Source: Perkinsus olseni (taxonomy: Eukaryota > Perkinsozoa > Perkinsida > Perkinsidae). From it: a stretch of 64,000 nt of DNA. The position numbers and the translations under genes were made by a program. Numbering within the stretch: the first letter of the stretch is position 1; every line of letters starts with the position of its first letter. The stretch spans positions 62,001-126,000 of the forward strand of contig JABANP010000102.1 of assembly GCA_013115135.1 (NCBI GenBank), read 5' to 3'. The notes under the pieces were generated by a model, which was not told the DNA's origin, made no database searches, and worked only from the letters and a program-made list of their open reading frames with translations. Of the stretch, positions 2,448-56,721 are shown in pieces.

Positions 2448-4962
2448 TTACTTCATACAAGCTGGGCAGAGCTCTTCAGCCCAAACAGGGGCGTCTGTCC
2501 GCAAGTGGAACTCCGTTCCATCGTCCAGCCTGGCCGAGTATGAGCACGCGTGCAGAAAGATACCTCCAGGAATGGTGACGTCAGAGATGCCTCCTCGGCC
2601 AGGCAATCGGCGAATAGCGAAGGGATGCCTCTCATCGAAGACCCCACCGTACTTCTCGTCATTAACGATTGGCAGGCTAATAGACTGCAGATGCACCTGA
2701 CCAATACCAGAGAATCAAGCGGTCGCTGTGCCTCGATGGCGAGGCGGGATAAGGGAAAAGTTGCGAGTATCAATCACAGAGGGAAAATTTTTCCCGGAAA
2801 AATGAAAATATGTGCTCAGAAATAGAAGTCCGCAAGGGAGCGCCGAAAGCAATTGCGATTTTACCGTAATAGAATCGATTCTGCTTTCACGTGTTACTAA
2901 CGTGATGTTAGGACGCCTCTCACCGGTAGCGAGCAGTCAAGCAGGGCGAATAAGAGCATATCAGTGCCATGCACCGCAGTTAACCGTGTTGAAGGTACTC
3001 GGGTGCCTCTCAGAAATTATGAGAGGATTCTGGGAATTCTGTGTCAGAATTCCCTGACGTCCGCCGACTTACTCGGATTTGATGTTTCCTCCCGGTGACA
3101 GGAATGCATTCGACGATGCTCTCATCCAGATCAGGTATGTACTTCATCAAGCTTATCCGTGTCAGGGAGGGTCGACCGTCTTCGCTGATGGTTACCGTAC
3201 CATCAGTACGATCGACTCGGAGGGGTGCAGCAACAACAACTACGAAATTTGCCAATCATAGCAACCCACCGCGACCCGTAACCCACCCTCGCCAGCAGGG
3301 CATCTCCCGGAAACTCTTGCAATATACGTCTTATTCGCGCTACGTCTTCGCTGGACTTGTTCGAATTCACGAGCTGCGTTGGCGGTCTTCGCAAAAACTA
3401 CCTACACAGCGTGAGGGATGCCGCTGATGGGAGTTGTTCCATGAGAGTCTCTGGCTGCACCGCTGCTCTACGTCAACAGGAAAAATTCTCACGAATTTAT
3501 GATGAGCTTCATCAGGAGATGGTGGAGAAGTTGTCTTTCGGTTCTTTGTAAGTTCACCAGGGAGATGACCTCCCGAATTCAGGGATGTCATCGGACGACC
3601 GACAGAAAGATATTAGCGCACCGCGAAGAGAAAGTGCTTACTATCCCCGAAGTGACCCTATCAAGTCGATGTAGCGGAAAAAGGTGGTATCCACGGGAAG
3701 CCTCGAGGATCTTCACGCAGGTGTTGTAGTAATAACCCACACATTCATGCACCTGATTAGAGGGAAAACCTATTCAGCATCTGAGAAGAATAAAAGTAGA
3801 TGGGCAAGCAGAAACAGAAGTTTATTCGCGTGTGCAAGAAAACACCATCGAAAGTAACGACGAGGGTTCAACTCGAGGAAAACAAACGACGGGAGGGACT
3901 GGATTCCGGGCTCTCCAGGCATTCCAGGCCATGGAGCGGCTCTTGGTCTACTGTCATGGGCCGAAACACAACACGACCAAGTCGGTGTAGTGACAGCTAC
4001 TTACCGGGAGACCACAAGGCTTATCGACAGCCAGGAACTCATCCGTCTCCATTAAAATTTTCATCGGCGTTGCTGGGATAGGATTCTCCACGCCTGAGAC
4101 AGAATAAGCTCTTCCTGGACTTCATCATATGAGAGTCCATACTCAGCAGCACCGAGAGATATCAAGGGGGCCGCCGCTGGGGGGTACCTCTACCGTAGAG
4201 GCTCTACGGCTCACAATGCAACGGTGATATTGTGACGATCGCACAAGGAAACCCCTTCACTCCGATGCATCAGGAGACGCGTCCGAGAAGGACTACTAGC
4301 ACACAATAATTGATCAGGTGAGTCGAAATTTGAGTTCGACCCAGCGTGGAGGCGTACTGAGTGCAAAACAGCTTGTGAGACAAGACGCGCGCGCAGCACG
4401 AGAGAATGATTACTACAAAGAAATTACTAACCATATCAATTCCAGCTTAGGAGTTCCGTTATGACCAGTAGCTGTCACATCCCGAGCACCCATCACCGCT
4501 TACTTATCGATCTCAGCCACAGACTTTCACCCGGGGCGACTCGATGGCCCTCGTCTGCTCTGAATTCCTTCCTACCACGCGCGAGCTTCAAATCACCGTC
4601 CCGCAGCAGCCTGAAGGCCGACCTGAGCGTGAAAAACGTTCATTTTTGAGCAACTTAAACAACGAAGAGAATGATTCTTGAGCACAGGCCAGCGGTACAC
4701 AAGCACGCTGTTGCACTGCAAACCAATCGTTGGTGATTTCCACGAGAGCCTCCCACTAGTGGGTCTCAGTCAAAACTTACCCTGCCAGCCCACGGCCTAG
4801 AAATCGAAAATCATCAGCAAACAGCTCCGCTATCGTCTTCCCTGCCCAGCGTTCCTTGATCCTAATCTCGAAGCTCCTTTCGTAGGGTGTAACGCATCGC
4901 AGACCATCCTCTTCGTATATCAGTGGCCGTTTCGATACCATAAAAAACGAAACTTTAAACAA
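2448..4962 (-). CDS. RluA/RPUSD2-type tRNA pseudouridine synthase, multi-exon
   Basis: Members of this family isomerise uridine to pseudouridine in tRNA or rRNA. Four coding blocks are seen. Block 1 (4962 or 4941 to 4781) has GLRCVTPYE and KERWAGKTIAELF, the N-terminal signature of the RPUSD2/Pus9 branch. A block near 3394-3297 has SSEDVARIRRILQ, as after the LD..TSG region of the family. The next block ends at 3073 with VTGRKHQIR. The last (2696-2448) begins VHLQSISLPIVNDEKYGG and contains IFLHACSYS and WAEELC. The intron 3072-2697 is well defined (GTAAGT...CAG, phase 0) and restores the canonical TGRKHQIRVHL motif. The exon with the catalytic HRLD motif was not located; it should lie between 4780 and 3400. 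The large intron holds the palindromic insertion at 4188. Confidence 0.75.
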
Positions 4963-7900
4963 ACTGATCTCCGAGACGATTCACGCTACAGACGGTCGTT
5001 AGCAACTCGGGACAAATTGTCGACTGAGGTAGTGCATATCTCATGCCTCTACTCCAATGATGCACGGCAAACCTCAACCCCGGGAAATGACGGATATAAG
5101 GTTGTTGAAAACAGATTCTAGATTCGAAAAGCGTATTCTCAAGGTTAAGGTTGTGATAAGCATCACCATCAGCCTTGAATCTGCTCAGTTTTCATAGGCT
5201 GTCTTCAAACGCATGGGCGATGCCGAACGGCTCAGCCGAATTCTCGATGCGATCAACACAGTGAGTGGCACTGTTCACTCTATAGCCTTGAAAATGCCAA
5301 CAAATGCACGCTCCGAAATGCTGTCGCGTGCATTGCCGTGTGGTGTGCGACATTTCTGCCTGGGTGATCAATTCTCGGAGCGATACGTCCATCATTCAAA
5401 TTCCTGAATGGTGGGTAAATTGACTCAATTTAATTGAGTCGTATTTCTTCCCTACCGAACAGATTCCGCAGCGTCCGAACTGATTCCTGAAGCTCCTAAC
5501 TTCGACAACGTTGTCGAGGAAGAAGCGAGTTACCTTCACCTGTAGAAGCTGCTTTCCCCGTCCATAAAGTACTTCTTGAGCTTCTATGGGGAAAGCGAGC
5601 ATTAAAAGTATACACAACCTGCCGAAAACAGGAACATGAGAATCCACTCACATTGCATAGATGAAAAAACCCGCACGACTATGCACCCTTCAGTAAGAAG
5701 CTCTCCGAGGAAGTTCTTCAAGACCGTTGACAAGTGTATTTGATAAAATATTGTACGGGCCTTCCGGGGGCTCGCAAACTTGGGCGGGAACACTTCTCCC
5801 GGCTTCCTGGACAAGTTTAAGGCTTGAGCTCATGAGCTTCTCAATTTTCCCAATGAAACGATTTGAATTGAAACCCCTTATTTTCATTGAACAGTCTCTA
5901 ATGGGTTCATCATATATGATAAATAGTCAGTGACTATCGGATATAAGGACTCCATACATCAAGCTCGGGTGCTCAAAACTCAACAAGAAATATCCTGCTC
6001 ATGCCATGTGGCAGCACGGTGATATCGTGCAGAATTAGCAATTACCCCGCAGTAGTACGCAGGAGCATCAAACGTTGCACCATTTTCTTCGCTCGCACCC
6101 TCATTGGTTCCCTCCTCAGTGAGGGTTCCTCAGTTCCCTCGACGTTGACCTTCCAACCTGGGCGCATTAAGGGAGCGGATTCTCGACTCGACGTTCATAG
6201 CCTTAGCATTGAGCACATCTCCAGAATACATGCAGTTAATCAGACTCCGGTCTGTCTAGGAAACGCACCAAAGCCTCCATAGAGGAGGATCTTGACCACT
6301 ATGCTGCACTTTGCTGAAACTGCTGAGCACCATGCTGCACTATCTCAGGGCAACCCATGTGTGGAATCAACATGGGGAGAGGACGGAGTCGTCACGCAGC
6401 TACCCTCGCACAGCCCAGCGGAGGAGTAAGGCCATAGGTCTCATCAAAAGTTTCCCAGACCGCCTCGCCCGCGTCTCTAGGGTCCACAGGCAGTTGATGA
6501 ACATCAACCCAGCGAGCTGCGAGAACCCTCAGGAAAGCTCATGACACCCTCAATTTTTTCTGAAATTCTCGGATGGACTCAGTCTGGCTGTTATAATCGT
6601 GAATCCGCTCTGTCACAGAGTCGGCACAGAGCCTCTGTGCCAGGACTTTAGAAGAAGATCTTCGATGTTCTGATAGCGAACTGCTCGGAAGAGTTCCGGT
6701 CAATGGACGACTCTTCATCGGTCAATGTTTGACCGTCATTCCCTGAGTTGCGCTGCGTGCTTCCTCCAGCTCCTCCCACAAACTCATAATCAACGCAGGC
6801 TCGAATACCAAGCAGTATTCAATAGAGAGTGGCTCCCTGTAATACGAAGATAGGTAGAACTTTTACCGTAGAAGACTCCATTTGAGCTATAGCTCACTCG
6901 CTACTTTAGTGGAAATCGAAACGTTAGAGGCGGCGGAGCGATGCTCTTATCGCATCGCGGGAGACGCGCCCCACCTCCAGCTGCCCTCCGATTCTTCTGT
7001 GCCGAATCCAGCCGTTTTCGTATTGCTGGTGGCGCTAGCCTGCTCCTAGACTCTCTCCCCAGAACTCGAATCAGCTGCCATCATTTGCTCACAGATATGA
7101 TCCTATAGCGGCACCTGGGGTGACCACGAGTCATGCAATAAGTCTCGTGATGACACGAAGATATCCAGCCGCCGTCTAGATATCTCGCAACAAGCAGCAT
7201 GCCGGTACAGACGGGACCGCGCCAACGACGAGGGTAGACTGAAAAAGAGCCAGTGAAGAATAAGGAACGAATAATCCGGTCAACACGAGCGCTTTCGGTA
7301 TCATGTCATTCAAGAGACACGACCATCCGACTGTTGAAGGTCATGGACATGGATTTCTAGAGGCTCTCTAGCCTACATAGAGAACCCGCAGGCCGTGGCC
7401 CTCAGCAAAGTAAGGGACTCTCACGAACCCCTACTGAGGGTTCTACGCAAAGGAGGTTTCTCAACCACGTACAGAACGCAAGTCCGTTGGGAGATGACAA
7501 CACAAGATCTGTGTCACAGAAGTTGCAGAAGGATCAGTAGCGACGTCTGCAGCCGACTTGACAACTGAGAGGTTCAATTTTCCAGGATCCTGAACCAAAA
7601 AATCTGTTGGGCTGGCCGCTAGCTGCGCAACGCCCTAGCGCTCGGGAGGGGTTCTCGCATGGCCTCAGAGGCCCGACCTCTGAAGAAAAGGTTATCATCT
7701 ATAGCATTTTGGTCAAGCACGCTGGCAACACTGTTGCCGCAACAGTCATCTTGGCAAACTGCGCGAGTTAGCTGCTCTTCCCTGTGGAATCTCTCTTTGC
7801 GCCTTTCCTTCATTGGTCTCTCCGCGAGCAGAGCGTTGTGATGGGCCAAGCAGCCGACCGGAACGCAGCCGGTCAGTGCAGTGACTTTGCAGCAGCGCTC

Positions 7901-10900
7901 AAGCACAATAATGCGAGTCCTGCGGGCTTTGGTTACGTTGCTCGCGTTGTCGGTGAGAACGGTCACAACAGTTACGGTAGCTCGGCTGAACGCCATCACC
8001 GTGATGGCATCACACACTTCATCACCAAGACGAGCCGAGATACACTCTTCTCTGAAACTTCTGCGAGCAGAGTGAATTCAGTTCACACGCCCAATCGGTC
8101 CGAGCGCGCCACTCAGCCGTTGGTAGCTGGCTTGGGAATCACTAATGCTGTCTTCACCGACCGCGGAGGTCAACTGTCTCCTAGGGAGTCTCGTCGACTC
8201 TCAAGTGAGCATCTGTCTTAGACAGACTGTCTAGTAGAGATTTCGAGACCAGAGGTATCTCACCTCGAATTTCGAGGCTCGAAATCATCGATCTCGGAGC
8301 CTTCATCTGTTGTCGATTGTCAGCGACCGACGATCGCCGACCGTTACCCAATGGGTGATGGTAATACCCATCACAGCTCGAAATGCAGCTTCCAAAGTAG
8401 GAATTACTGCCAAACCGCTTTAATCGGAGACATTCTCTCTGAGAGAATGCTATGTCCCAGTATCTTGATGCATCATCGGGGTGCATTCGTCGCGGAGCGA
8501 CGCAACTGAGCGACCCCAATGCGAAGGAGCGGCTGTTATCCTTGATCAGTGACCATTGATCACACTTCACTACATTTACCCCCAGACTCTAGGGCTCAGA
8601 GACGGAGTTCAAACAAGCTGGGATAACGATGTTATCCGCTCGTGTAGGCGAGCTAGACGAGCACACACGGGTACGGTGAACTAATGTCACATTATTAATG
8701 TGATGACACCTCGATGCAGTAGTGATATAATAGTGAGATAATGGTCAGAGACATTCCTCTCTGCGAGGCATAAGCTCTCTCGAATAGAGTTGTTGAATCG
8801 ATTGAAGCAGTCTACGTGGGCAGTAACTATGTTTGAATCTCAGTTCGAGATTTTCCCATGACCCAGCCCAGAGAGCGCTCCACGCAGTCTCCGCATTCCA
8901 GAGGATCTAGCCTACCTGTTCCAGTGAATATTCACCAGCTCCGCGTACACTGCGAATCCTCAGTTAATGAACTGCGGAGCGCAGTCTGCGCCCACCTTTG
9001 GGGGCCCAGGGTTCGCGGTTCTCCATTCTGCTCAATCCTGTGGATTCAGAGAAACAAGATGTGATTACTGGAAATGACCTAGAAAGTTATTCAGTCCCAA
9101 ACGTTATCACACTCAGTTGCCACAGTGTGACACACTGTGGCAATCTGCAAGCCTGAGCATTATTATATGGGTTGATGAAGCTATCCTGGGCTTCCAGGAA
9201 GCCGCTTCCTCTGCATGAAAGACACCGAAGCTAAGCGATGGGGCCTAACGAACGACCCGAGCGAGGCACCATGAGTCCATGCCGAACAGTGGGAATAAAC
9301 GTCGCAAAATTGTTGAAAATGACACCGGGTAATCCTCAATGGGATATCAGCGAGATATCATCTTTTACTATTCCAAACCACCATAATGATGGCATCATTC
9401 ATGGACTGCTCGCCCGCGGTCGGCAGCAGTATCAGATATAACGAAGGCGACGACAGTTCCACTGAGTGGCGAATCTGATTCACTCTGGTTTCGCCGAGAT
9501 GGTAGAGAGCCCATCATCGCCTCTTGCAAGGGCCGACTCGCTCGGAGCTCGCCCGATGTTCTGAGTAGCGTCGACTATTGTACCAAATCCTAAACTGCTT
9601 CCGCACTTCGGGCTCAAGCTCCTATATAGCTCCGTCGCGTGAAGTCAGCTGCTCTTCATCATGCGGCATCTTGAAGGACGGTAGATGCGCATCATAGAGC
9701 CTTTTATCACGTCCACCTGTATCTACATAGGTATGAGTAGCTCGGGGAAAATCCACAGGCATAGCTCACTCGTAGGCGATACTACTAACTCGGGCAAGAC
9801 CCCAGTCATCTCCGTGATGATGGAGGTGAGAGTGGCCGCGTCTGGAGGTGGGCCATCGAGATGAAGAGCGGAATTCCCCACTGTAGTGCCGAGGGCTCGG
9901 TAGCTCCCCTGAGGGGAGCGAGTCCGACTCGCCGGGTCCTGGAGGGGTTTCAGTGGAACCGTCTCACGGCGGCACGTTTTGCAGAAAGTTATTGACGTAT
10001 TTCTACCTCTTCTGTACTGCGAAGAGTTCAGATGCAACGAATGTTGTTAAGGACTCCTGTGACAGGAGTGAGAAAATCCGTGCACCTAGCGGATGCATCT
10101 CCCTAGCAGGGAGTCCCTACTACTGCCGTCAAAGAGTCTCTGCTAGCCGGGCGAGCCAAGCCTCTCCAAGACTAGCCTGAAAGCCTCAGACGGTATCTCT
10201 AACCCGGAGTTCTGACCAACTTGCGCAGACCCAGCTGCGAGTGGTGACCGCCCAGTACTCCCCTCCTCAGTAGGGGTTCACTACAGGTGAACCGGAAATC
10301 ATTCGACATCCAGACAGTGGGTCGGACCCACTGGGTCCCAGTGTGGAAGTGTCACAGCATCTCTATAAGTTACCCACTTACGTTCCGAGTCGGAACTTCC
10401 GACGTCATTCAAGCTGGCTCGTCTCTGACCAGAGGCGTGTCCCAGTGCCAATTCTGCGAGAAAGGCGGCGATAAGCACTAGCCAGATTAGAACTCATTGT
10501 ACCTTGACGATGAGAAGGATCAATGGCATAAAATATATACCATAAATGTCGAATGCCAGATTCGACTCAAACCATTCGAGGAATCCCTCAGAAGAGATTG
10601 AAGAAAATAGACCTGGCGTGCGGTAGCTTCCATACGCTCCAGGCTACGCTCCACAACGCAACGCCAACAAGAGCGAAGTAACGAAGAAAGTTGTCGACAC
10701 GACACAACGGTTGAGAGCATAGTCTTCTTCCTATAGCTCAAAGCGAGCAACTATCCCCCTCCTAAAGCACCGCAGTCTCTCAACTGACCTTTGCGACGCC
10801 AGAAACCTATCAGGGTGGCTGGCGGAAGGAAAAATAGATTTTCTTTCCTTCACTTCTTTTCTTTCAGGAAAATAGGAAAGTAAGGAAACTTGCGAAGGAA

Positions 10901-13900
10901 AGAATAATCCAATTTTTCTGGGCGGCCTTCGGCCGCCTCCTTAGAAAAAAGCTGTTTGTAGAGCAGTGCTTTGTGAGGCCGTATGCGGATCCTGATGCTT
11001 GCAACACTAGTAGTGATTCACTACCCCTGAGTAAAATCACCCACTGATCCCGATGCGTGAGTAAAAGCCGGGCGGTGATGCTGAGTACGCAAGTCGGATT
11101 ATATTACTCTGAGTAACATGCAAGATTCAAGATGCTGATTCCTGAGCTCTGAGAGAGAGTATTGATTCACGATGGTGAATCAAACCCCCGTGTCATGAAC
11201 GATCTTAATCCGCGAATCACAGTGTGATTATCACACCAAATTTACACGTAAAACGCCCAGATCCAGTACCGGGGGGTTCTCGGCGAGAACTTCTCGCCGC
11301 GACCCTCATGGGGGATGCTGATTCAAAACCCTGAGTAAAGTCTCGCAATCTTGAACTTTCGTAATTTTCCATAGAATTTGAAAGGTTAGGTCAAGTCGGA
11401 AAAGTTGGAAAAAAAGCTTGCACCAGTATTTGAACCCGAGCCGAATTACTCGGGTTGTCACGCAACATGACTCACGTTGATGCGAGTGTGTAAGATGCAT
11501 TAGAAAGGCGGTCGCCTAGGATGGAAACCGGCGATCCCTGCGTGCATCGGAGTAGGTCGCTGATTGCGATGAGGGCCTCATCATGAGGCCAGAATCGCAG
11601 TTCTCGAGCATCCAGATCCAGTCGTTTCCGAGAAAAATGGATTTTTTGGGCTGCACGCCCTGCGGGCGCGCGCTATCCACAAACGGAAGGAAAAATAGAT
11701 TTCTAATTTTCCTTCCCTCCGCAGGAAAAATAGGGAGGAATGAAAGAAAGAATGGAAACTTCAGCCACCCTGAAACCTATGCTACCACACGAGTCGTGTG
11801 ACACGACCTTCCTTTTCGGCAGTGTTCATAGACAGCGTAAGCTTCAGTGACCTTGGATGGAATTGCGCTGATCAGTCGCCACTGGCATCGACGTACTGTC
11901 CATGGTTGAAGGCAAGCCTTTCTTCCGGCATAGCGCCAAGATGAGTTTAGTCTGCGCAAGCCGCAAGCAACTCCCCGAGCAGAGACGCCAGGCTTATGTT
12001 CGGGTTGATTCCGCCGTTCTTTAGTCCACTGTTCACTGCCTCGATGGCGTTGTTGTGACTCGGCACACTCTTCGGGATGTCCTCAGCACCTCTGGAACCA
12101 GCTAGCTCTGTGGCGGAGCCAGGTTTCCGTGAAGTAGCCACGTTAGCTCACGGAAGTATTCGACCATGAATGATCCAACCAAGGTCATATCGCGTAAGTC
12201 ACATAGTTGTCGGTTCGCCGGGCAATTCGCCTATATTGCCAAGTTGCTCCATCATAGGGTTCGAACGATGGAAAAATTCCCAAGAAAGACCCCTGGTCGA
12301 AGGCGAAAAAATTCTCCGTTACTCCGCCTAGTGTCCGGCAGTGACTGTCATGCGAGGTTCAACGATCGCTGATAAGCATAGCCGAAACAGCTATACATTT
12401 AGGCCGGGTGATTCGGCCATGCGCCCAGCGCATTGCGGCAGCTCTCTCTCTATATACGAGCTAAGCACATCAGTATCGCAGCCCATCGAAGACTCCGCAG
12501 ACTTGGCAGGCAGGAAAATTTCGCGACTACTTCAGTTGATTACTTTCGAGTCAAAGTAAGCAACTGAAGGACCGGCTTCGAGCTTGAGGTCGGGCGCTGA
12601 CTGCTCACCGAGCATCTTCACTCGATTCCAAACCTTCTGTATTGATGTTGCACGGAAACGCTGTGTGACGCGGAACGTCTCACAGCTGCGTAGTACTGTA
12701 GACTACAGTCTGTAGTGAAGTACGCTTCGCTCGGAGAACGCTTGCAAGTAACTGGGCTTGAACTGACCAGTCACAGCTCCGTCTCACCCGGCGTCGAGCC
12801 CTCCCATATTCATGCATGGCTCATGATAAAGAAAACTGAGGAACGGCCTCTCCCAGAAACATCCAGTACGAAGAGCAGTTTCTCAGTAGCAAAATTTGCC
12901 GTTCAATTTTAAACAGCAGTTTCTCACCAGCGACGCAAGAGCAGCATTCCTTGAGATTCGGTGCTTACAAACGAGTAAGAGCCACTAATAAGACCTCAGC
13001 CAACCTACAATGCTAGTCCGGCGCCCATAGCACAATCCCGACGCATGTTGGCTGTGACAGTCGAGTACCTGTAGGTACGCCTACGAGCGCCAAGCTGCGA
13101 GCAAGCCCTCCTACAATGGATTCTCAATACACACCTCGTAACCTTCCTCGTCAGGTATATGCCCGTCTGGGAGTTCAGGACTATTTAGGACTAGACAACG
13201 GCGATGATGGGAGTAACTGCTGCGTGTCAGTCCAGCTCGGTGCAGAACGGAAATCTCGGGCTGACCTTAAAGGGTATCTCCAACGGGCTGTTAGTCGGTG
13301 TAAGCCTTCGGAGAGGGCTTGGATCTGAGCAATTTTCCACACGAAGAAATCGCATCTAATTTAAAGCAGGGCAAACCTCGTAGGCAGGTAGAGCAACCAA
13401 GTCGGGTGCCAAAACCCGATAGACGAAAGGAAACAGCTCCGCATACCTACGGGGTAACCGTGGTCAACCGGAAGTGGCCTCGCCCCCAGCCTAACATGTG
13501 CTCATGCGTTCCATGGTACTGCAATGTGAATGCCGATGCACAGCCGAAACGGACATCAGCCGCACTACAGTGGACATATTCCTGTACTAAGGAGGAACCG
13601 TGAAGACCTGACAACTCATTCGGATATCTGTGGATTTTATAGGAGACGTGGCTACAACGCATCTTTCGAACTGGCCGCGAGAATTCTCAAACCAATACTT
13701 TCAGAACATCGCCTCTCGCGAGCAGCGCCTTGCGCACTATAATGACACCAATTGTTAACTCCAGAGACTCAAGCCCAACCGTCGGGAAGCTACCGACAAC
13801 CGCTACAGGATGGCCTCCGGCGGGAAAAAACCGAGATGTCCTGTTTTCGGGGGAAATTGTAGAGCCGGCTCAATGCAGGATCTGGCAGTTTGAAGGTATC

Positions 13901-18439: not shown

Positions 18440-19591
18440 TCACAGAAGGTAGGGATGGTACTTCACCACAACAAGGTCTTCAGTGATGAGCTTCAAGGTA
18501 TACCGAAAACTCCAGTCGCCGAATACCACCGAAGATGGCAGAGTTGTTCCGCACTTGGCAATCGTTGCTGCTTTCTTCAGCCCTCTACCATGACGGAGCA
18601 CGTAGAAATCGCCCTCCTCGATCAAAAGGAAACCGAGTCCCGGCGTGTTCCTTATAAGACTGCCACGTATTCTCCAAGACTCCACCATTCCATCCCTCCT
18701 TGAGCTGAATAGTGTGGGACCACTTTCCCTGACCACGTCGATCTGCACCGAATGCCACGTCGAATCGGACTTATAGATGAAGTCGACAGCGCGAGGGCGA
18801 TCGGGCACCGGGGAGAAACGGATGAAAGAAAAGCTGGGGTCATCACCTGGTTCATGAAATTCGTAGGCTAGCCTGACTTCCCTGGGCCCTGCGGCACTGC
18901 ACATAGCGGATCTCGAATCTGCAATACGAGCCCTTCTTGATGAACACCATCGCCGCATAGAGCAAGTCGCCAATAACAATGACGCCAGCAAGTCTACCAC
19001 TGCACGAAGCTAGGCATGGAAGCATGATCGGCCTTTTCGTCTTACCGTTCGCCATGTCACGGATTGACAGGGTTCCACCATTATCATATAGCACGACCAG
19101 GTGGCGGGTGCCCTCGTCGTAGTAACACCTCCAAGCAACTCCCTCGGAAGCAAGAACGCACAGATTTGAGAGCTTCGTAATAGAGGGCGCAAGGCCGACA
19201 GCACTGCTGTCACAGCAGTGCACATGCGGTATAGAACGAGGCTTTTCCCCTCCCGGGAGATACCGTACACAGAACCACAGTCGATGAACATGAAGTCCGC
19301 CCTGGCCGGCTTCTCAGCGAATACGTCCTCGCGGGGACAATCCAACCTCAGCTCAGGCTTCCTGCAATACTCCATGATATCACCCATGAGGTCGTGCATC
19401 GGCTCCCTACCCTGCTGACCATCCCATAGCCTCTCGATGGCCATACAACGGAGGGCCTCAAAATGATGGGGAAGTTGGAATACCATTACACAGCCGACAG
19501 GCAACCTGGGATGCCAGCTTCGACTGCACCCATTGGTAACCCTCGGCCTAGCGTGAATGAATTCAGGAATTCGTACAGAATAGGTATGCAA
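18440..19591 (-). pseudogene. unknown protein, reading frame broken twice (copy 1)
   Basis: Three overlapping minus-strand frames (19591-19010, 19223-18852, 19000-18440) together read like one protein of about 380 residues. Landmarks in order are HFEALRCMAIERLWDG, MHDLMGDIMEYC, VVLYDNGGTLSIRDM, GDDPSFSFIRFSPVP and VDFIYKSD.TWHS. The first frame break coincides with the 20-bp palindromic insertion at 19198-19217. Dropping 14 nt there joins KSLVLYR directly to the frame of LAPSITKLSNLCV. The second break, near 18905, is unexplained. A homologous degenerate copy is at 22940-23385. No family is recognised. It could be a pseudogene or a gene whose insertion is handled after transcription. Confidence 0.5.
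19198..19217. repeat. palindromic 14-bp insertion inside a coding frame
   Basis: ACAGCA-CTGCTGTC-ACAGCA: two identical 6-mers around a core containing their reverse complement. It sits exactly at the frame break of the gene above. Confidence 0.8.
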
Positions 19592-21058: not shown

Positions 21059-21601
21059 TAAGGGTAGGAAACCGGGAACGAAAAGAGAGGTCGAGCTATG
21101 GAATGTGGCGCGCGTCTCTTCCCGCAGAGACGGCGGAGGGGTAAAAATCGTTCGCCCGAGGAGACAACCTCTGACTGCGGGAACTGGGAGAAAGGTACGG
21201 TTATGGCACACCTGAACAGGGCATGTGTCACGTGCCTCTGCTGAGGACGACAGGCGAAGGAGCAACGCCGGCCCATCTGCCAGTGCACCGGAGTGATGGG
21301 CGTATGAACACGCATGCACCCCAACACTGGACTCGTCCAGCCTGCCAGGCTGAGCCTGGGAACCCTTGATGCCAGGGCTACCATGGCTCACCCGCAGACT
21401 CGGTTTAGGTTGAGGGTGGGAGCCTCCCACTGGGACTCCCAGTCTGGGAGGGTTCAATTCCACCTGAGAAGGCGGCGGATAGGTCACGAGGAATATCCCA
21501 GACCGGCTCACGCCGACGTAGCATAGAGAAACTGAGAAGAGAGGCAGTTGGAAGGTGGTCCACGCGTCTCCACAGGACCACTCCTCGTGACTGCCGTGCA
21601 C

Positions 21602-25192: not shown

Positions 25193-25207
25193 AGAGACGG
25201 GAGATAG

Positions 25208-40370: not shown

Positions 40371-40870
40371 GTTTTCTGTGAGATGAAGGGTCTTCGCAGA
40401 AGAGCGTTGTCTGGTCGTGAACGACGGAGGCTCCGTCACGGAGCGTGCCCACGGCCGGTGTTCCGGACACGGGGTGCGCTAGGCGGCCGGACGCGCGGCG
40501 ATCTAGCGCTCGCGTCACGAGTCGTGACGCGCGACGCGCTCTTGCGTGGGGCCGGGCGAGGGACCCCAGTTCCCGGAGCCGGGCTGCATCTTCAACTGCG
40601 GCACGTTCGTGACCTGTATCGCGTGGTATCGCTCCGACCTCTGATCACTCTCCCACGGCTTTCCCGATCGAGTCGGGCGAAGGTCCGCGCGTTTTAGCCC
40701 GATATCTGTCTTCGAGAATGTTTCAACGGTCTTCATTTCGAGAGCTATTGACTTCATTGTGGTACAGTCGTTCTTCGTTGTCTGCTGAGTGTTTAGTATG
40801 TCGGATTCGGGCCGTACGACTATTTCCGTGTGTTTATAGTCCCACTTGGCCCTCTTTTGTGTATGGTTAA

Positions 40871-41107
40871 ATGGCTGCCGTTGAGTTCGATTACCTGGAG
40901 AGGCAGTCCTCAGGCCTCCTCGACTTCTCCGTCCTCTCCTTCTACTGCCAGACAGTTAACGGCGGGGAGCATATCGGCCTGGTGGGAGGGAGCTTGGGAT
41001 TCGGGATGTTTTCTGGCGCCCACGTGGTCCTCCGGCTATCAAGGCGCATTGTCCGCCGTTATGGCCGCCATCTCAGTCTGAGATTCTCAGGTTCTCACGT
41101 CAGCTGA
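40871..41107 (+). CDS. short open frame at the end of the retroelement
   Basis: 78 codons from MAAVEFDYLERQ with hydrophobic, Gly-rich middle (GEHIGLVGGSLGFGMFSGAH). It could be an element-encoded fragment. No match recognised. Confidence 0.25.
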   Translation: MAAVEFDYLERQSSGLLDFSVLSFYCQTVNGGEHIGLVGGSLGFGMFSGAHVVLRLSRRIVRRYGRHLSLRFSGSHVS

Positions 41108-41148: not shown

Positions 41149-41206
41149 TCATGCAAAGATGGAAGTTCGCCTTTGTGACAAAGGCTTTGTCGCAGTTGAA
41201 AGCCCT
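41149..41206 (+). repeat. right terminal repeat, with a 14-bp palindromic insertion
   Basis: Matches 36924-36967 except for extra bases within CTTTGT-GACAAAGG-CTTTGT (41171-41190), where the left copy has a single CTTTGT. This is a direct before/after view of the insertion type found at 43 sites. Confidence 0.75.
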
Positions 41207-41522
41207 CAGCGAGATGCGGAAGATAGAAAAGAGCTTGCAGCTATTCTGGTGTTGTGCCGTCAATTGGCATTTCGGTGTCGTGCTGCTTCCCTGCGGTGAC
41301 GCGTGGGTCGCGCGGCGCGACTCGCCCCGATGAACCGGTCAGTTTTTGAGAGCCCACCTCGCCCTTCACGCATAAACAGAGGTTTCGGCGAGCATTAACA
41401 GCTGCTGCTAGTGTCCCGCTGCTAGTCACTCAGTGACTATCAGCGGGATGAAGGCTTCATCATGAAGCTAGCGACCACACAGTTCAATTGTATGATGCAT
41501 GCAGTGCGCCGCAACCATTCAT

Positions 41523-44548: not shown

Positions 44549-44589
44549 TTGGGGGCAGACGCACCAACAAGAGGGCCGAGTGGACACTC

Positions 44590-45180: not shown

Positions 45181-45347
45181 CTGTCGTAAGATAGACGTAT
45201 GGTTCGTATTGCTCAACAGTTTCTGGTGACAGCAGGTAGACATGCCTCTATGAAGTCCGTGTCCCTACATTTCGAGATTGTCAAAGGCGTATAAGGAACA
45301 GAGACGGAGGAAATTCCTCCGAGGAATGTGTGAGGGTCCCCCAAGAA

Positions 45348-45404
45348 GGAACCTTACGATGCGGTCGATAGTAGGTCCTACTATTGACCGCATCGTAAGG
45401 TTCC
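45348..45404. repeat. 57-bp inverted repeat with a single central base
   Basis: Arms of 28 bp with one G-T mismatch around a lone T at 45376; the left arm starts GGAACCTTACGATGC. A second hairpin (10+1+10) follows at 45410-45430, and a palindromic insertion precedes it at 45307. Confidence 0.9.
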
Positions 45405-45937
45405 CTCTAGCATCCTACTAAGTAGGATGCATATATCGGAATAGTATCGACCCAGGTTGTGAAGAAGACGTTATACGGAAGCGGTTCCCAGGGACAACTT
45501 GTCCCGGGCAAGGAGACATTGGCAATTAAGCCGAAATCAAGTGTCTGATGTTCCGATAAACTTTGTTTCATCGGTGTAAAACTCACGCGATCTCGCCTCG
45601 CGGTGGGCTTGTGTGCGACAGCCCACACGTCACGCAGTGACGTGTGGGGTGCCTACGTGTTCATGTCTCCGCTTCCCTGTGGACCGGCGGGGCGACTTTT
45701 AAGCCCAGCCCGTCCCTCCTTCTCCGGGGATCAATCTTCGTAGCTCTCCATACTCTGGGATGTTCACGCCCCTCTGCCTGTGGAGCTTGCTTGCGTCGCT
45801 GCCTACTGTCTGGTTCGCGAGTAAGCGAGATCGTAGACGGAGTTCTACATTACATTCTGTGGCCGAACCTCAAGAGGATCGCCGCATAGCTTTCGTTCAT
45901 ACGCGAGATCAGAATTCTGTCTCTTCATAGTGTAAAC

Positions 45938-47929: not shown

Positions 47930-48077
47930 GCCTAACTAACGACCCATAACACTCATAACTTATGAGTGGCTTCAACAACCGTGAAGGTAACGAGCAGAGC
48001 ACTTTGCTCTGTCGTGAGCCTGCAATCCTGAGTCGTACATTTGGTACACCATAAGCACTACATCCGTTCGTTTCGCA

Positions 48078-48701: not shown

Positions 48702-50169
48702 ATCAAGCTGCAGGATTTCATTATCGATCAACTCGAGTCCGGTGTTATCACTCATTCAGCCTTGTCTCAAGTAGCCACACTGTACTGAGTTACTGTGTGG
48801 TAAGGTAGCAGTTCCTTGTTCTCGTCGAGAACTTCTCGAAGACTACCCTCGAACTTTGACTTCAACTTTAAGGTCTAATCATCTGCATGGAAGTCGAGCC
48901 CGAGCTCTGATCACGGTCCGTTAACGATTTTTTTCTTACGGATATTTTTCATTCGAACTAGCTGTCCCTAGAACATTCTGGAGTGGGCTAGCTCCACACT
49001 TTCGGCTGCCCCTTGTTCTTGACATAATTCCGGATACAGCAACAATGGTGAACCGCCTAGACAGGCCCAAAAAGTCCACTATCATTATGGCACAATGACA
49101 TAGCCCCTAGGCGCTCATCCCTCGCTCAGGGGACCAAAGTCTGTTACGCTCATCAACCATGACCAGCTGGGGAGAACGCCCATCCTGACTCGTGATCTCC
49201 TGCAACCCGCATGCACTGGCACTTAAATCGGTAGCGGTCCACCCCTTTCGTGAGCTCGGCATCCCCATCGCCGCATTCCAGCCGTTCTACGAACCATGAC
49301 CTTCCTCCCAGCTCTAGCTCTCATGAACTACATAACTTTCAGCTATCCTACCTCTGCCACAGAGTGCGGCAATCCGTTAGTCCGGAATTGACGGATTCAG
49401 TTTGTCTACGCCAGGCGAGAGCCTTGCCGCAAGGCTGCTCAGCAGCCAGCACAAATACCATTCGACCAGGGTGTCAACCATGAGGCACTCGGGAGGTAGA
49501 TGGTTGTTGAATTCCTGAGCTTCCATCTTTAGCTACACTGATAAAGTCATTCACTAGCGTCAAGCTGAGCTGAGGTTCCACGGTTGTGGACCCGCATCAC
49601 GTTGTGAAGATGTCATCGAGATTTTCCCAAGTTCATACCGCTCGTCTCCAGACTCTTGAATCGAGAGGCCCCTTCTAAATAGTCGCCTTATACATCATCT
49701 AGTATCAGGACTCCCCCGCACTCTATTCACAACACCGCGACCGTGGCACGAGACATATCCTCACGACGGATCATGCTGAGTTCATCCCGTTCAACCGGGC
49801 TCATTCAAGAGCAAGCACTGAATGAAGCACCGCTGACTTCAGCTCGTCGGAGGTCTTCAATGGTTGCAACGCGGTGATGTTCGAAATCCGGCCTTGGGTA
49901 TCCCTCTGCACATACTGCAGCCATGGACCTTGATGGAGCGATGGAGCTACCACTACTCACTGATGGCCTACGTCGTCCATGCTGCTCTCTCTGACTCTAG
50001 TAGATCTCCGTGGAGGGTTTCCGAGTCGACCCGATCCTGACGAGGAGAGCGGCGGATCATCATCACGTACCGGCCTCCTTCGTGGGGCTCTGGTCGGTCT
50101 TATCGCAACGAGGGGCGCATGTACCCCAAATGATGGAATGATGCTCAGAATGATCATCCTCGACTCGAT
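48702..50169. other. no gene seen
   Basis: One palindromic insertion (48819) and a short inverted match to the retroelement frame (49543-49570). Otherwise featureless to me. Confidence 0.4.
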
Positions 50170-51567
50170 TCAACCCTCCGCTGAATTCACCTCAGCTGTG
50201 ACGTCATCACCATCGAACCGGGCTAGACTAGTCAGGCGGTATATGACCCTCAACTTCACTGATCTGAAAAACAACCGCGATGATGATGATGGACCGTGTA
50301 GGGCAGAGCGGCAACGTACGGCAGTTGGGCTATCGGGTTGCCCGAGATCCACAGGTCCGCCAGGTTAGTGAACGCTCGCTCGAGTATCTGTCGGAATATT
50401 GATCACGCGGAAGCAGCAGCCACGCTGTTGCTGCTGGCCAACCTCGAGGTTTGTATCCAGGTCATCGAGCTGGTTATTGGATACGACCAGCCTGGCCAGG
50501 GTGGTGCAAATCCATGGGCTCAACCCTTGAAGATTCTGCAACAGAGACGTCCGAGGCGGCAGAGCAGGGCTTCGGCTCGCCTTCACAAAGTTGTTCGAGA
50601 CATCCAATTCGCGCAGCCTGTTGAGTCCTTCCAAGCCGTGCAGGGATGAGATCTGATTATGAGTAAGCTTGAGGACACCGAGCTCGGGAAGGTGGGCTAT
50701 GTTCTCGATGGTGGTGATTTGGTTCTCGGATAAATCCAGCAGTTCCCTACCGGAGTAGCAGCGGTGGTCGGCCGTCACGATCAGTTCACTCACAGGTGAT
50801 TAGTGCGCTTCAACCCATAGGCTGGGATTTGCTTGATAGCGTTCCCGCGTAGACGCAGTTGCCGGAGAGAGGTCCGACAGTTGGACCAGTCACCAAGCTC
50901 CTCTGAAGAAATCTTAGGTTGAAGCTTGCGACGGATGAAACAGGTCGCTCTCACGGATCTCGTTGTAGCTCATATCCACTTGCTCTAACGAACGAGAGAG
51001 CGCAAGACAGTCCGCCCTGCGGAGTAGGTTATGGGAAGCATCGAGTACTCGTAGGCAGGGCATAGCGGATCTAAGGTTGAAGCTGGCTAATCACAGAGGG
51101 AGCAGCCCTACAGGGCGTCGAGCCTCCTGAGTCTGTTGTGGCTCACATCCACCACCTGCAGATGACGGTAGTCTCTCAAGACCTGACAAGAGGCCACTTC
51201 CACAAAGCACCACTGACGGCCGTACCGGGTCGAGGTTAGTGAGTGAGAGATTCCCGATGCTGCATGAAAGGTAGGCGTGGTGGCCAGGCTGTACGGGCGT
51301 GATGCCGAGCCCGCCAAGGCCAGCAGTGACCTGCTGTTGTGATGATGAGCCCGAGGGCTGGCTGCTGCAGTCCCTGCCCACTTGCTCTCGAGTGAGAGGA
51401 GACACGTCATCAGCGGATACCTCAACCTCGTCCGGGATGGCTGTTTCCCCTGGCTGGCGGCACATGGCAAGACACGGCAGTAAGGAGATTGTAGACTGTG
51501 TGCCAAACCGTTGTGTATCAGTGCTGTCCCTCTGGGTCACCCAGACTGGGTGGATGTCCTCAGCCAT
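50170..51567 (-). CDS. leucine-rich repeat protein (SDS22/LRR-cap type), 350 residues, 8 exons
   Basis: Exons 51567-51226, 51182-51112, 51070-50955, 50902-50794, 50746-50587, 50535-50443, 50387-50320 and 50263-50170 keep frame from ATG to TGA. After an N-terminal disordered part with SSQQQ come at least eight LRRs of the LxxLDxSxNxI type: LQVVDVSHNRLRRLDAL, LRVLDASHNLLRRADCL, LEQVDMSYNEI, LLDLSENQITTIENIAHL, LGVLKLTHNQISSLHGL, LRELDVSNNF and LARLVVSNNQLDDL. The end YRLTSLARFDGDDVTAEV is a typical LRR cap. Introns are 41-56 nt. Such proteins are protein-interaction scaffolds, for example PP1 regulators or axonemal factors. The partner cannot be told from sequence. Confidence 0.85.
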
Positions 51568-51832
51568 ACTTCAATAGTCACAAAGCAGTGGTGATAGTCA
51601 AATTCACTTTCTCATCAATCCACTTGCCTGTTGTGCTGCCTGGGAGTTGCTACCCTAAGCTTACAAGCCGCGAAATGCCCAAGAAATCTACTCGAGAAAC
51701 ACTCAAAAGCGCACAACTTGTCCACCATGGTCTCTTAATTGGCTCAAGAACAACATGGCACTTCGAGCAGCTCGAATCGAGCTTTCACTGAGCACAACCA
51801 TGTGGTCCCCAATGCGATCATCATGAAAATCA

Positions 51833-52672: not shown

Positions 52673-54502
52673 TCAGGATTCCTCCCCCATCTTCAAGTCA
52701 AAATATCCTCGCAGCCTCGCCTTCCCGTAATTTTCGTAGTCAAACAGCGACGCATCGTCATCGTCCTCGTCCTCGGTACCATGGTCCTGCTCGAAATGCT
52801 GTATGACACTCCAGGCGCACCAACGAAGCTCAGCCGCCATCGCGTACAGTCGGACCGTATCCAACTGAGGACGACTGATGAGGAGAGCTTTTCAGGAGAA
52901 GGCTTACCATGGTGGACTCATCAAGGCTGCTGTACTCACTCTCTGTGAGGTAATTACGTAGGAAAAGCAACTGTGAGAAGATGTCCTCGCCGGGGATCGA
53001 ACCCGGGACCTCGAGCTCACCTGTAAGTCTTTGCTGGGGAAGTACTTCTCTACGTTGTAATCGTTCTCCACAATGAGCATGCTTTCTACCACCTGAGGAC
53101 GGAGGAACAACCCTCAGAGCGTTTCCAACCAAGACAAACCAACTCCATCATTTCGCGCCCGCCTGATTCCTGAATGACTATTCAACCTAGTCACTCATCG
53201 ACAAGAAGGTTTCCACGTCATTGGAGCCGCCTCCACCGTGGAGCCTCCACGGCAGAGGAAGGGGCTGCGGTCCTGGCCTACTACCGCAGCGAAGTGGTTG
53301 GCGATGTCGGCAACTGCAGGGTTGAAGGCGCAATACTCGTAGTCGATGAACCTCAACGACGACTGCCCGTCATCATCCTTGGGCACCAATATGTTACCCG
53401 AGAGCAAATCGTTGTGGCAAAAGACAATCTGACATGAAATACCTCACCAAAGATTCGAACCCACCACCTCCACCATGGCAGAGCTGAACCCTAACCCACT
53501 CACCTTCTCGAGCGAGCTCTCATCAACACTCTTGCGCGACTCGATAGTTCTCTGCAGCCACTTAGCCTCCCCTTCCACTGTACTAAGCATCGTCATGAAG
53601 TCATCCTCCTCGTCCTCCGGTGACGACTTCAACAACTCCCGTCCCTTCGCGACGTAGGACCTAATCCTGTCCCAGAGGTCCGGCTGATTGACATCCCTTC
53701 CCCGCCCCGCAGCAGCTGGCTCGAGGGAGTGCATGTACCTACGGACCCTATTCCCTTCACAACAGCCGTCGCCAAATACCGTAAATGCTGTGCTATCGCC
53801 GGTGTCCACTTCTCGGTGACCATCTCGAGCGGACCGAGTGGCCGCAGCTGCGTGAAAAACTCCTCAACACGACCATTCCTGAATCCGAATGCCTTTGACA
53901 GAGAATCTTCGCTGTGCGCTCACCGAAAGATACCCAGCAGAGCGGGGCCGAATCCAATGGAGCTGAGGTCGTTGAACACTCGATTTTCCGTTTTTCTATC
54001 AATAATCGAGCTGCCTGCCTCCCCGAACACTCGCACAAGACAAACCGGGAGGCGACCCAATGGGCCCTCTTTGTCAGGGCAGCCGGACGCACTCCCAGCC
54101 GTGGAGTCGGTAGGCGCGTTGCTCGCCGGTGATGCCCCAGAGTCCTGAGGTCCCGGGTTCGATCCCCGCAGCGTGCACTTTTCAAGCATACCTCACCAAT
54201 ACAGAACTCCACTTTGAACAAGGAGTTGGTTATCCCTCCGGTAACTCTCGTCACTTCCACCGGCGTCTTCCTCGCTCGAACGCCCTCGATTTCCGCCCCG
54301 GCCAAGTGAGCGACTTCGTCATTATACCGCAGCACACATTCGCCTGACCACCATCATGACGGGGCGGTACTTTGCAAAGGCTCCTACGGCAGAGGCTCTC
54401 GAGATGGTCAGAAACCCGAGGGTCGGAGGGGTCGATGGAGACCTCAAATCGAGGTACTTGCTCCCAGGTGCAAGGCATTACAAAAAGATATATGGGCCAC
54501 AA
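52673..54502 (-). CDS. choline/ethanolamine kinase, 8 or more exons
   Basis: Family role: ATP-dependent phosphorylation of choline or ethanolamine, first step of the Kennedy pathway, cytosolic. Exons with consistent phase: end at 54197, 54068-53924, 53878-53780, 53747-53504, 53428-53285, 53092-53021, 52970-52908, 52864-52673. Landmarks: TRVTGGITNSLFKVE (N-lobe), CLVRVFGEAGS, the Brenner phosphotransferase motif IVFCHNDLLSGNIL with FIDYEY, and DYNVEKYFPSKDLQLLFLRN. The C-terminal ELRWCAWSVIQHFEQ and FDYENYGKARLRGYF complete the family pattern. The exon upstream of 54335 is ambiguous; MPCTWEQVP near 54478 may be the N-terminus. Introns are 32-192 nt, and three carry tRNA-like B boxes. Confidence 0.88.
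52971..53020 (-). other. 50-nt intron made largely of a tRNA T-arm-like core
   Basis: GTGAGCTC, then GAGGTCCCGGGTTCGATCCC on the gene strand, then GGCGAGGACATC and CTCACAG. B box at 52993-53003. The 3' part GCGAGGACATCT recurs beside the B box at 57146. Confidence 0.75.
53429..53503 (-). other. 75-nt intron resembling a tRNA 3' half
   Basis: Runs from GTGAGTGGG to CATGTCAG. The middle reads TTCAGCTCTGCCATGGTGGA and then GGTGGTGGGTTCGAATC on the gene strand, like an anticodon arm followed by a T arm. B box at 53452-53461. Confidence 0.65.
54069..54196 (-). other. 128-nt intron with an antisense tRNA-like unit
   Basis: On the plus strand GTGGAGTCGGTAGGCGCG (54101-54118, A-box-like) is followed by GAGGTCCCGGGTTCGATCCC (B box 54156-54166) and GCAGCGTGCACTT. 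The unit lies opposite to the gene. Confidence 0.65.
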
Positions 54503-54598
54503 TCTTTCGAATACTCATGTTTCCGACACTTTAGCGCGCGCCCTGAGAACACAACCACACGATGATTGGTAAGACGTGGGTGTTGCAGTGAGGAGAGG

Positions 54599-56199: not shown

Positions 56200-56721
56200 T
56201 TCAACAACATCACTGTAAATGATTCAGGAATAATGATAAAGATCTCGCTGCCCCACCTCTTGTCAACACAAAGCTGTCTCAGCTAGTGCTAACTATATCC
56301 ATTCTACATTGTAGAATCTACAAGACCGAGTACGCAGAAGCTACGAACCCGAAATGAGCGAGACTGACAAGAGCCTGTCCTTCACAATAGAGCAGGAACA
56401 AGCGTGTGGTGGAATCGTTGAGAAGGATACAGCGCGACGTCGTGCGCAGTAGATGAAGTAGACAGATTAGCTATATTAGCTAGCGGCCCGCATTCGCGCC
56501 AAGTCAGCGCGCGGCCCCTCTTTACTTGGCCTCCCGACTCCCTATGTCGAGTTCCGAAGTTAGAACTGAGGGGACACGAAGATTGTGTCACACTATTACT
56601 GCCGGCATACCTATGAAGTGCTTCATCCTCCAGTCCTGAAGAAATAATGGGAGACAACAAGGCCACAACAATCGCCTTCTCATCCCCTACTCGAATACGA
56701 CACTGATACCGACATGAAACC

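What the first reader, a model, noticed from the sequence alone, without database searches (positions are those of the whole stretch)
4188..56322. A rigid 14-bp insertion signature at 43 or more sites: D6, inverted D6 in an 8-nt core, D6
Seen directly: at each site listed in the repeat feature a 6-mer is followed by an 8-nt core holding its reverse complement, then by the same 6-mer. Examples: CTCTAC-CGTAGAGG-CTCTAC (4188), GAAGAG-CCTCTTCC-GAAGAG (22677), TTCAAG-CCTTGAAG-TTCAAG (33949). Spacing never varies and the 6-mers almost all differ, so this is not a sequence family but a product of one event type. By simple probability about 0.002 such sites are expected in 64 kb. They avoid well-supported exons. 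Possible makers (inference): a polymerase that copies 7 nt, adds one base, folds back, copies 7 nt and resumes 6 nt back; or repair of a 6-nt staggered break with hairpin opening, such as a transposon excision footprint or a nuclease scar. The constant size argues for an enzyme with fixed geometry. I know of no described element with this form.
Basis: seen in the sequence. Interest (0 to 1): 0.93.

Follow-up and report, generated by a model that had tools for sequence, protein, structure and literature searches.

The report
Scars of hAT jumping-gene excision
The repeated 14-base insertions are most likely scars left when cut-and-paste jumping genes of the hAT type leave their sites in a Perkinsus-like genome; they are unusually dense and mostly of one form, so they record how DNA hairpins are opened and rejoined.

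Summary
In detail: 59 exact sites. The true unit is 22 bp: an 8-mer W = t1..t8 became t1-7 + reverse complement of W + t2-8, a 14-bp insertion. 52 of 59 are perfect; 264 kb hold 139, a Markov shuffle 0. This is the product expected when a hAT transposon (8-bp target duplication, flank hairpins closed one base off the element end) excises and the opened hairpins anneal through complementary overhangs. Paralogous copies show clean 14-bp presence/absence. Eight indels of other sizes with exactly 6-bp homology all have the predicted apex bases on both sides, which a fixed-size polymerase jump does not predict. hAT transposase genes, and hAT elements with 8-bp duplications beside empty sites, are present. 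W has a weak GTYnnRAC motif. Unusual are the density, about 23,000 estimated (8,600-41,000), and one dominant product: 125 of 141 by scan, 20 of 28 among paralogue indels; published hAT footprints are more varied. No site was seen occupied in one copy and scarred in another. New variant of a known kind.

The parts
10803..11780 (.). hAT element, 962 bp (too short for a full transposase gene), TIR CAGGGTGGCTG, with 8-bp target duplication AAACCTAT at 10803-10810 and 11773-11780
11003..11024 (.). footprint inside the element, one mismatch
1916..1937 (.). footprint, D6 AAATCG
2781..2802 (.). footprint, D6 GGAAAA
4187..4208 (.). footprint, D6 CTCTAC, W=CCTCTACG
5417..5438 (.). footprint, D6 AATTGA
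7724..7745 (.). footprint, D6 GCAACA
7993..8014 (.). footprint, D6 CATCAC; base after not complementary
8212..8233 (.). footprint, D6 CTGTCT
8263..8284 (.). footprint, D6 CTCGAA
8681..8702 (.). footprint, D6 TAATGT; base before not complementary
9189..9210 (.). footprint, D6 GCTTCC
10317..10338 (.). footprint, D6 TGGGTC
10382..10403 (.). footprint, D6 TTCCGA
11215..11236 (.). footprint, D6 ATCACA, inside the hAT element, shared with copies L063-L065
11276..11297 (.). footprint, D6 TTCTCG, inside the hAT element; L063, L064 and L067 lack the 14 bp at this column
11568..11589 (.). footprint, D6 ATGAGG, inside the hAT element; L063, L064, L066 and L067 lack the 14 bp at this column
11786..11807 (.). 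footprint, D6 ACACGA
12695..12716 (.). footprint, D6 CTGTAG
19197..19218 (.). footprint, D6 ACAGCA
21338..21359 (.). footprint, D6 AGCCTG
21429..21450 (.). footprint, D6 CTGGGA
22620..22641 (.). footprint, D6 CTCCCG; base after not complementary
22676..22697 (.). footprint, D6 GAAGAG, W=GGAAGAGG
22714..22735 (.). footprint, D6 CAACAA
23113..23134 (.). footprint, D6 CGAGTA
23158..23179 (.). footprint, D6 GGGTAA
23504..23525 (.). footprint, D6 TGCTAC; base before not complementary
25590..25611 (.). footprint, D6 GTGAGG
25877..25898 (.). footprint, D6 TTTCAC
26162..26183 (.). footprint, D6 GCCCTT
26239..26260 (.). footprint, D6 TTGAGA
26344..26365 (.). footprint, D6 TGACTC
26447..26468 (.). footprint, D6 GAGAAC
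27492..27513 (.). footprint, D6 TCGTGT
30097..30118 (.). footprint, D6 ACATCG
30129..30150 (.). footprint, D6 GTTCAA
30227..30248 (.). footprint, D6 CACAGA
31453..31474 (.). footprint, D6 ATAGAG
32294..32315 (.). footprint, D6 TGAGCT
32356..32377 (.). footprint, D6 TATGCA
33887..33908 (.). footprint, D6 ATCGAG
33948..33969 (.). footprint, D6 TTCAAG, W=CTTCAAGG
36256..36277 (.). footprint, D6 TCCCTA
37295..37316 (.). footprint, D6 CCAGAA
38596..38617 (.). footprint, D6 TACAAA
39350..39371 (.). footprint, D6 ATCGAG
39529..39550 (.). footprint, D6 CGAGGA; base before not complementary
39599..39620 (.). footprint, D6 GCGAAA
39797..39818 (.). footprint, D6 CCTTGA
40423..40444 (.). footprint, D6 ACGGAG
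41070..41091 (.). footprint, D6 TCTCAG; base after not complementary
41170..41191 (.). footprint, D6 CTTTGT
41447..41468 (.). footprint, D6 ATGAAG
45306..45327 (.). footprint, D6 GAGGAA
48451..48472 (.). footprint, D6 CCCGAG
48818..48839 (.). footprint, D6 TTCTCG
51531..51552 (.). footprint, D6 CTGGGT
51762..51783 (.). footprint, D6 TCGAGC
53230..53251 (.). footprint, D6 CTCCAC; base before not complementary
56302..56323 (.). footprint, D6 TCTACA
6607..6639 (.). non-canonical footprint, 25-bp insertion, palindromes 7 and 10 nt
8344..8371 (.). non-canonical footprint, 20-bp insertion, palindromes 6 and 5 nt
9107..9137 (.). non-canonical footprint, 23-bp insertion, palindromes 4 and 14 nt
27174..27231 (.). 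nested or repeated non-canonical footprint; two overlapping readings, 36- and 50-bp insertions
45369..45427 (.). non-canonical footprint, 51-bp insertion, palindromes 9 and 11 nt

Best explanation
The sites are excision footprints of hAT-superfamily transposons. Shown: the product is W[1-7]+rc(W)+W[2-8]; paralogues without the insertion read as a single W; hAT elements with 8-bp duplications and hAT transposase genes are in the genome. Inferred from known hAT chemistry: an element sat between two copies of W; the transposase nicked one base into the flank and closed each flank end as a hairpin, so the hairpin apex is the complement of t8 on the left and of t1 on the right. The hairpins were nicked away from the apex, giving two 3' overhangs that are parts of rc(W) and of W. 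These complementary overhangs annealed, gaps were filled and strands sealed. The outcome does not depend on where the nicks fall as long as the overhangs overlap, which explains the rigid 14 bp. When the overhangs did not anneal, or the hairpins opened further out, longer palindromic insertions resulted.
For: Flank bases 56 and 55 of 59. Only W=8 with a one-base offset gives exact sites in number. 11 of 11 14-bp paralogue indels carry the structure with 0-1 mismatches; more. All 8 non-14 indels with exactly 6-bp homology have both predicted apex bases. Scan without paralogues: 141 rows with at least 4 nt of palindrome on each side; 0 in six Markov shuffles and 2 with the wrong apex. Enumeration of all nick positions with random sequence: 41,967 of 42,000 runs with 3 or more nt of designed overlap give the canonical product. 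W motif GTYnnRAC from 201 unique sites, symmetrised, against nTnnnnAn for Hermes (PMC10368747, passages). hAT dimerisation domain 21 matches; one 581-aa open frame with DUF4371 + Dimer_Tnp_hAT. Elements with 8-bp duplications beside empty sites. Published Ac/Ds footprints are centred on the complement of the base bordering the element and show microhomology (PMC5873905, passages).
Against: No pair was found in which one copy holds an element and the other the footprint at the same W. Of 10 MITE copies examined, 4 had a perfect 8-bp duplication by script (two of these have identical flanks on one contig) and a fifth by eye; the rest did not. Footprints outnumber elements: 139 perfect footprints in 264 kb, 5 hAT-like TIR+TSD elements in a 283-kb scan. 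Of 37 non-14 indels of 6 bp or more, 29 do not fit the model as tested (24 with 4 bp of homology or less, 5 with 5 bp or other than 6 and the apex base on at most one side). Nine of 29 14-bp indels had under 6-bp homology, which I ascribe to later substitutions without testing each. At palindrome length 3 the wrong-apex control for other lengths equals the observed count (22 against 21); the signal is clean only from 4 nt (1 against 16).
Confidence: 0.9

Rival explanations
1. Hit-and-run cutting: a hAT-like transposase (perhaps domesticated) cuts 8-bp staggered targets and makes the hairpins without an element ever residing there, so a scar needs no earlier insertion.
For: Footprints outnumber elements. 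The same end product and the same W motif would result. No occupied/scarred pair was found.
Against: Elements with 8-bp duplications exist beside empty sites. Known hAT hairpins form at element ends, not at bare targets (recalled).
Confidence: 0.05
2. Template switching by a polymerase with fixed geometry: copies to t7, jumps to the other strand, copies 8 nt back, and resumes 6 nt back.
For: Gives exactly the canonical 22-mer.
Against: Does not predict the 8 non-14 indels with the same 6-bp homology and apex bases but palindromes of 2 to 27 nt, nor a target motif.
Confidence: 0.02
3. Excision scars of another superfamily with 8-bp duplications (P, Merlin, KDZ, Novosib).
For: 8-bp duplications are shared (recalled).
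Against: The one-base hairpin offset is a hAT feature and P elements leave 17-nt overhangs (both recalled); hAT transposase matches and TIRs were found. I did not search for the other superfamilies.
Confidence: 0.03

Closest known systems
Ac/Ds (hAT) excision footprints in plants, S. cerevisiae and C. albicans
   Same: Palindromic P-nucleotide insertions centred on the complement of the base bordering the element, with microhomology in repair (PMC5873905, passages)
   Different: There more varied: 28 kinds in 128 in C. albicans, the two commonest in 35 and 18, longest P insertion 3 nt; arms up to 20 nt in S. cerevisiae. Here the complete 14-bp product makes up 125 of 141 rows or 20 of 28 paralogue indels with exact 6-bp homology
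TcBuster / Tol2 / Hermes hAT systems
   Same: 8-bp target duplication (Tol2, Hermes), hairpin-repair footprints (TcBuster), weak target preference (nTnnnnAn for Hermes, weak palindrome for Tol2) (passages)
   Different: TcBuster footprints are insertions of a few nt and deletions up to 50 bp; about a third of Tol2 excisions leave differing footprints (passages)
V(D)J coding joints with P-nucleotides
   Same: Flank hairpins opened off centre (recalled)
   Different: No one-base apex offset, no target duplication, highly variable joints (recalled)
Amoebophrya introner elements
   Same: Local direct and inverted repeats in a relative of dinoflagellates (PMC7789003, passages)
   Different: Those are introns with 3-5 nt direct repeats and 8-20 nt inverted repeats at their ends, not 14-bp scars

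Membership tests
hAT excision footprint | 8-bp target site underlies the scar | tested here: met
   Only W=8, offset 1 gives exact sites in number; copies without the insertion read as a single W
hAT excision footprint | Hairpin apex is the complement of the base bordering the element, on both sides | tested here: met
   56 and 55 of 59; 8 of 8 non-14 indels with exactly 6-bp homology; 2 wrong-apex against 141 at 4 nt or more, but 22 against 21 for other lengths at 3 nt
hAT excision footprint | Variable P-nucleotide lengths | tested here: met
   2 to 27 nt in 8 paralogue indels; 16 of 141 rows non-canonical
hAT excision footprint | Same site occupied by an element in one copy and scarred in another | tested here: inconclusive
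   Two 10-kb queries (39 of 438 and 39 of 256 candidates scored) and a self-comparison gave occupied/empty pairs only
hAT superfamily (resident elements) | Transposase with hAT dimerisation domain | tested here: met
   21 PF05699 matches; 581-aa frame with DUF4371 and PF05699
hAT superfamily (resident elements) | 8-bp target duplication and TIR starting CA/TA | tested here: met
   5 of 8 rows of the TIR+TSD scan, the other 3 being one inverted repeat in L039; but 5 of 10 copies of one MITE lack a clear duplication
hAT superfamily (resident elements) | Target preference nTnnnnAn | tested here: met
   T 0.37 at position 2 of W, 201 unique sites; A 0.37 at position 7 follows from the symmetrising. 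The preference is weak
hAT superfamily (resident elements) | Active transposition today | not testable with these tools
   No reads, no strains

The most novel reading that the evidence does not exclude
This organism resolves paired hAT hairpins by a near-deterministic annealing route: hairpin nicking far from the apex followed by annealing of the complementary overhangs, in place of the more error-prone joining seen in plants, yeast and animals. Excision would then have one predictable main product, and the genome would hold tens of thousands of datable records of past element positions. (Lowered from 0.4 on checking, because 20 of 28 is less extreme than 125 of 141.)
Probability: 0.35. Interest if true: 0.72.

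Novelty: new variant of a known kind. Interest (0 to 1): 0.6.

Why it matters
Excision scars are usually varied and hard to recognise. Here most can be read by a simple rule, so the history of cut-and-paste transposition (rate, target choice, age, selection against exons) could be measured genome-wide without the elements. The dominance of one repair product gives a natural data set on how hairpin ends are opened and rejoined in an alveolate. Comparisons of this genome with its relatives should expect 14-bp indels of this kind and read them as transposon scars.

Tried and rejected
Considered and dropped: a sequence family or binding site (W differs from site to site; weak motif only); chance; a fixed-size polymerase template switch; introner elements like those of Amoebophrya. 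My first version of the hAT model predicted the base before D to equal y; one search showed it is the complement (55 of 59 against 1 of 59), and reworking the strand geometry after seeing this showed that the complement is what hAT hairpins give, so the one-base rule on that side was fitted to and then tested on the other-length indels. An early direct-repeat scan found no other footprint class; it masked near sites and looked only at end bases, and one search then found 16 non-canonical rows. A first TIR+TSD scan missed the window's own element because of my low-complexity filter; one search showed it. A loss of end joining was considered as the reason for the single product: Ku, Pso2/Artemis-family and Mre11 matches are present, one each, so it is not shown.

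Literature: the listings (15 of 20 papers shown; 10 of 24; 10 of 1,327) showed no title or abstract start on hAT excision footprints in Perkinsus, and (20 of 38; 9 of 9; 8 of 1,190) none on this single product dominating a genome. Passages only were seen of PMC5873905, PMC3499496, PMC7789003, PMC2753552, PMC10368747 and PMC4423477. The library lacks most subscription papers; Yu 2004 (PMC321453) is not held and is known here only through PMC5873905.

Full report
Observation. The exact pattern D6-x-rc(D6)-y-D6 occurs 59 times in the window, every time with an 8-nt core and the inverted copy at offset 1; cores of 6 to 12 otherwise gave two sites, both with core 12. The flanks show more: the base after the second D is the complement of x in 56 of 59 sites and the base before the first D is the complement of y in 55 of 59. 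The unit is thus 22 bp: an 8-mer W = t1..t8 has become t1-7, then the full reverse complement of W, then t2-8. Relative to a single W this is a 14-bp insertion. Seven of the 59 miss one flank base.

Controls. In 264 kb (the window plus 20 stretches of 10 kb from the same assembly, 10 chosen by position and 10 around hAT transposase matches) there are 139 perfect 22-mers. One third-order Markov shuffle gave none; W lengths of 6 to 12 with five offset pairs each gave 0 to 5 exact sites for every geometry but W=8, offset 1. The same geometry read as reversed or as complemented gave 0 and 0. Sites with 1, 2 and 3 mismatches number 52, 72 and 95, against 0, 3 and 14 in the shuffle. The mismatches are spread over the positions; 1, 8 and 17 of these sites overlap perfect ones. 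This looks like decay of scars of different age, with some chance matches among the weaker ones.

Where. The genome is 61.5 Mb in 968 contigs. The 10 stretches chosen by position, all on long contigs, hold 38 perfect sites in 100 kb, from 0 to 12 per 10 kb; scaling gives about 23,000 in the genome with a bootstrap range of 8,600 to 41,000. The window is richer than that sample (52 in 64 kb). Open frames of at least 200 codons cover 15.6% of the 264 kb but hold 6 of 191 sites with at most one mismatch, where 29.7 would be expected; long open frames are only a proxy for exons.

Ancestral state. Comparing paralogous copies within the held sequence gave gaps at the sites. Of 119 unique indels, 11 were 14 bp long, and all 11 were this structure with 0 or 1 mismatch. 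The window itself carries a hAT element at 10803-11780 with target duplication AAACCTAT; footprints starting at 11003, 11215, 11276 and 11568 lie inside it. Aligned with five other copies, the 11276 and 11568 insertions are absent from L063 and L064, which instead hold a 25-bp palindromic insertion that the window lacks. Three long copies of another region (L031, L068, L069) differ by many 14-bp insertions; every 14-bp indel printed there matches the structure with at most 2 mismatches.

Mechanism. If a hAT element leaves a W-element-W site, hAT chemistry closes each flank as a hairpin one base off the element end: t1..t7 t8' t7'.. on the left and the mirror image on the right. Opened away from the apex, the ends carry 3' overhangs that are parts of rc(W) and W, complementary to each other. 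Annealing and filling give t1-7 + rc(W) + t2-8. An enumeration over all nick positions with random sequences gave this product in 41,967 of 42,000 runs with 3 or more nt of designed overlap, so the rigid size can follow from the 8-bp duplication and needs no fixed nick.

Independent test. The same model predicts other products when the ends do not anneal: any insertion length, but 6-bp homology, the complement of t8 first and the complement of t1 last. In 106 collapsed paralogue indels (188 unique before collapsing), the lengths other than 14 with exactly 6-bp homology are 12, 22, 23, 24, 25, 42, 45 and 50. All eight have both apex bases right, with palindromes of (4,4), (10,7), (5,13), (9,11), (13,8), (8,27), (21,8) and (25,2) nt. 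In the same set 29 indels were 14 bp; 20 had 6-bp homology and 18 of those the complete 8,8 structure; the other nine had less homology, perhaps through substitutions. Of the 37 non-14 indels of 6 bp or more, the remaining 29 do not fit as tested. Among paralogue indels with exactly 6-bp homology the 14-bp product is thus 20 of 28.

Scan without paralogues. Asking for the same 6-mer twice, both apex bases and at least 4 nt of palindrome on each side gave 141 rows: 125 of 14 bp and 16 of other lengths, two of these being readings of one place; 0 in the shuffle, 2 with the wrong apex, 0 in 50 kb of E. coli. Five more shuffles gave 0. Asking for both apexes but a long palindrome (6 nt or more) on one side only gave 31 rows of other lengths, against 0 or 1 in each of five shuffles and 7 with the wrong apex; at 3 nt on each side the wrong-apex control for other lengths is as high as the observed count, 22 against 21. 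So the share of the 14-bp product is roughly 70 to 90%, by the measure used. A fixed-size polymerase jump does not predict the other lengths.

Makers. PF05699 (hAT dimerisation) has 21 matches in the assembly. One 581-aa open frame carries DUF4371 and PF05699. The TIR CAGGGTGGCNGA occurs 109 times against 11 for the reversed control; among the places listed many form facing pairs about 560 to 1,270 bp apart. Elements with matching TIRs and 8-bp duplications are at window 10803-11780, L031 4311-4902, L035 3500-4946, L036 379-532 and L036 3014-5989; three more rows of that scan are one inverted repeat in L039. The L031 element is flanked by GTGCCGAG twice where L068 reads GTGCCGAG once and L069 ATGCCGAG once. 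The 2960-bp L036 element has an empty counterpart whose two matches overlap by exactly 8 bases (C288, coordinates only). Of 10 copies of the 576-bp MITE, 4 had a perfect duplication by script, two of these with identical flanks on one contig, and a fifth shows TGGCGCTC on both sides by eye; the others had altered, truncated or partly palindromic flanks.

Target motif. From 201 unique sites, W has a weak symmetric preference G-T-Y-n-n-R-A-C; counts were symmetrised, so T 0.37 at position 2 and A 0.37 at position 7 are one observation. Hermes prefers nTnnnnAn with 8-bp duplications (PMC10368747, passages) and Tol2 a weak palindrome (PMC2753552, passages).

What is known and what is new. Ac/Ds footprints in C. 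albicans, yeast and plants are deletions and palindromic insertions centred on the complement of the base bordering the element, with microhomology, and varied: 28 kinds among 128 in C. albicans, the two commonest in 35 and 18 (PMC5873905, passages). TcBuster in human cells gave insertions of a few nt and deletions (PMC3499496, passages). In rice, transposon excisions almost always left deletions and/or filler (PMC4423477, passages). So the kind is known. New here, as far as the listings I saw go, are the density and the dominance of one complete product (capped listings of an open-licence library). Repair genes do not explain it yet: a Ku match just above its cut-off (28.3 against 25 bits), one Pso2/Artemis-family match and one Mre11 match are present, so loss of end joining is not shown.

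Open point. No site was seen occupied in one copy and scarred in another, so insertion followed by excision at the same W is inferred. Cutting of bare targets by a transposase would leave the same scar; I give it 5%.

Noticed in passing
L012/L037, L033/L040, L034/L037, L035/L040 (two), window/L066: Six collapsed 7-bp indels between paralogues; five have 0-4 bp homology and fit neither the hAT scar nor a simple duplication, one is a 7-bp tandem unit. Possibly footprints of another transposon type.
   Followed up: partly
L055-L060 (C146, C576, C24 flanks of the 576-bp MITE): By eye, some MITE copies lack outer bases and have inverted rather than direct copies of the flank, as if hairpins had formed and been repaired with the element still in place.
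   Followed up: no
L065 (C907), matching window 11277-11634: In this copy of the window's hAT element the segment is inverted, with one breakpoint at the 11277 footprint site (match coordinates; alignment).
   Followed up: no
L031 about 3745-3826, also in L068; absent in L069: About 82-bp insertion whose two sides overlap by 8 bases at the L069 site, with palindromic copies of the flanks; looks like a complex footprint.
   Followed up: partly
G000 C574, C209, C25: A 126-bp match repeated about every 375 bp, probably a tandem array.
   Followed up: no
window 55372-56223 (-): Open frame with an RsmB/F-type RNA methyltransferase domain (PF01189).
   Followed up: no
window 365-2011 (-): 548-aa open frame without a Pfam match; apart from the window's own protein, three Perkinsus olseni proteins were its only matches among the 7,997 candidates scored.
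   Followed up: no
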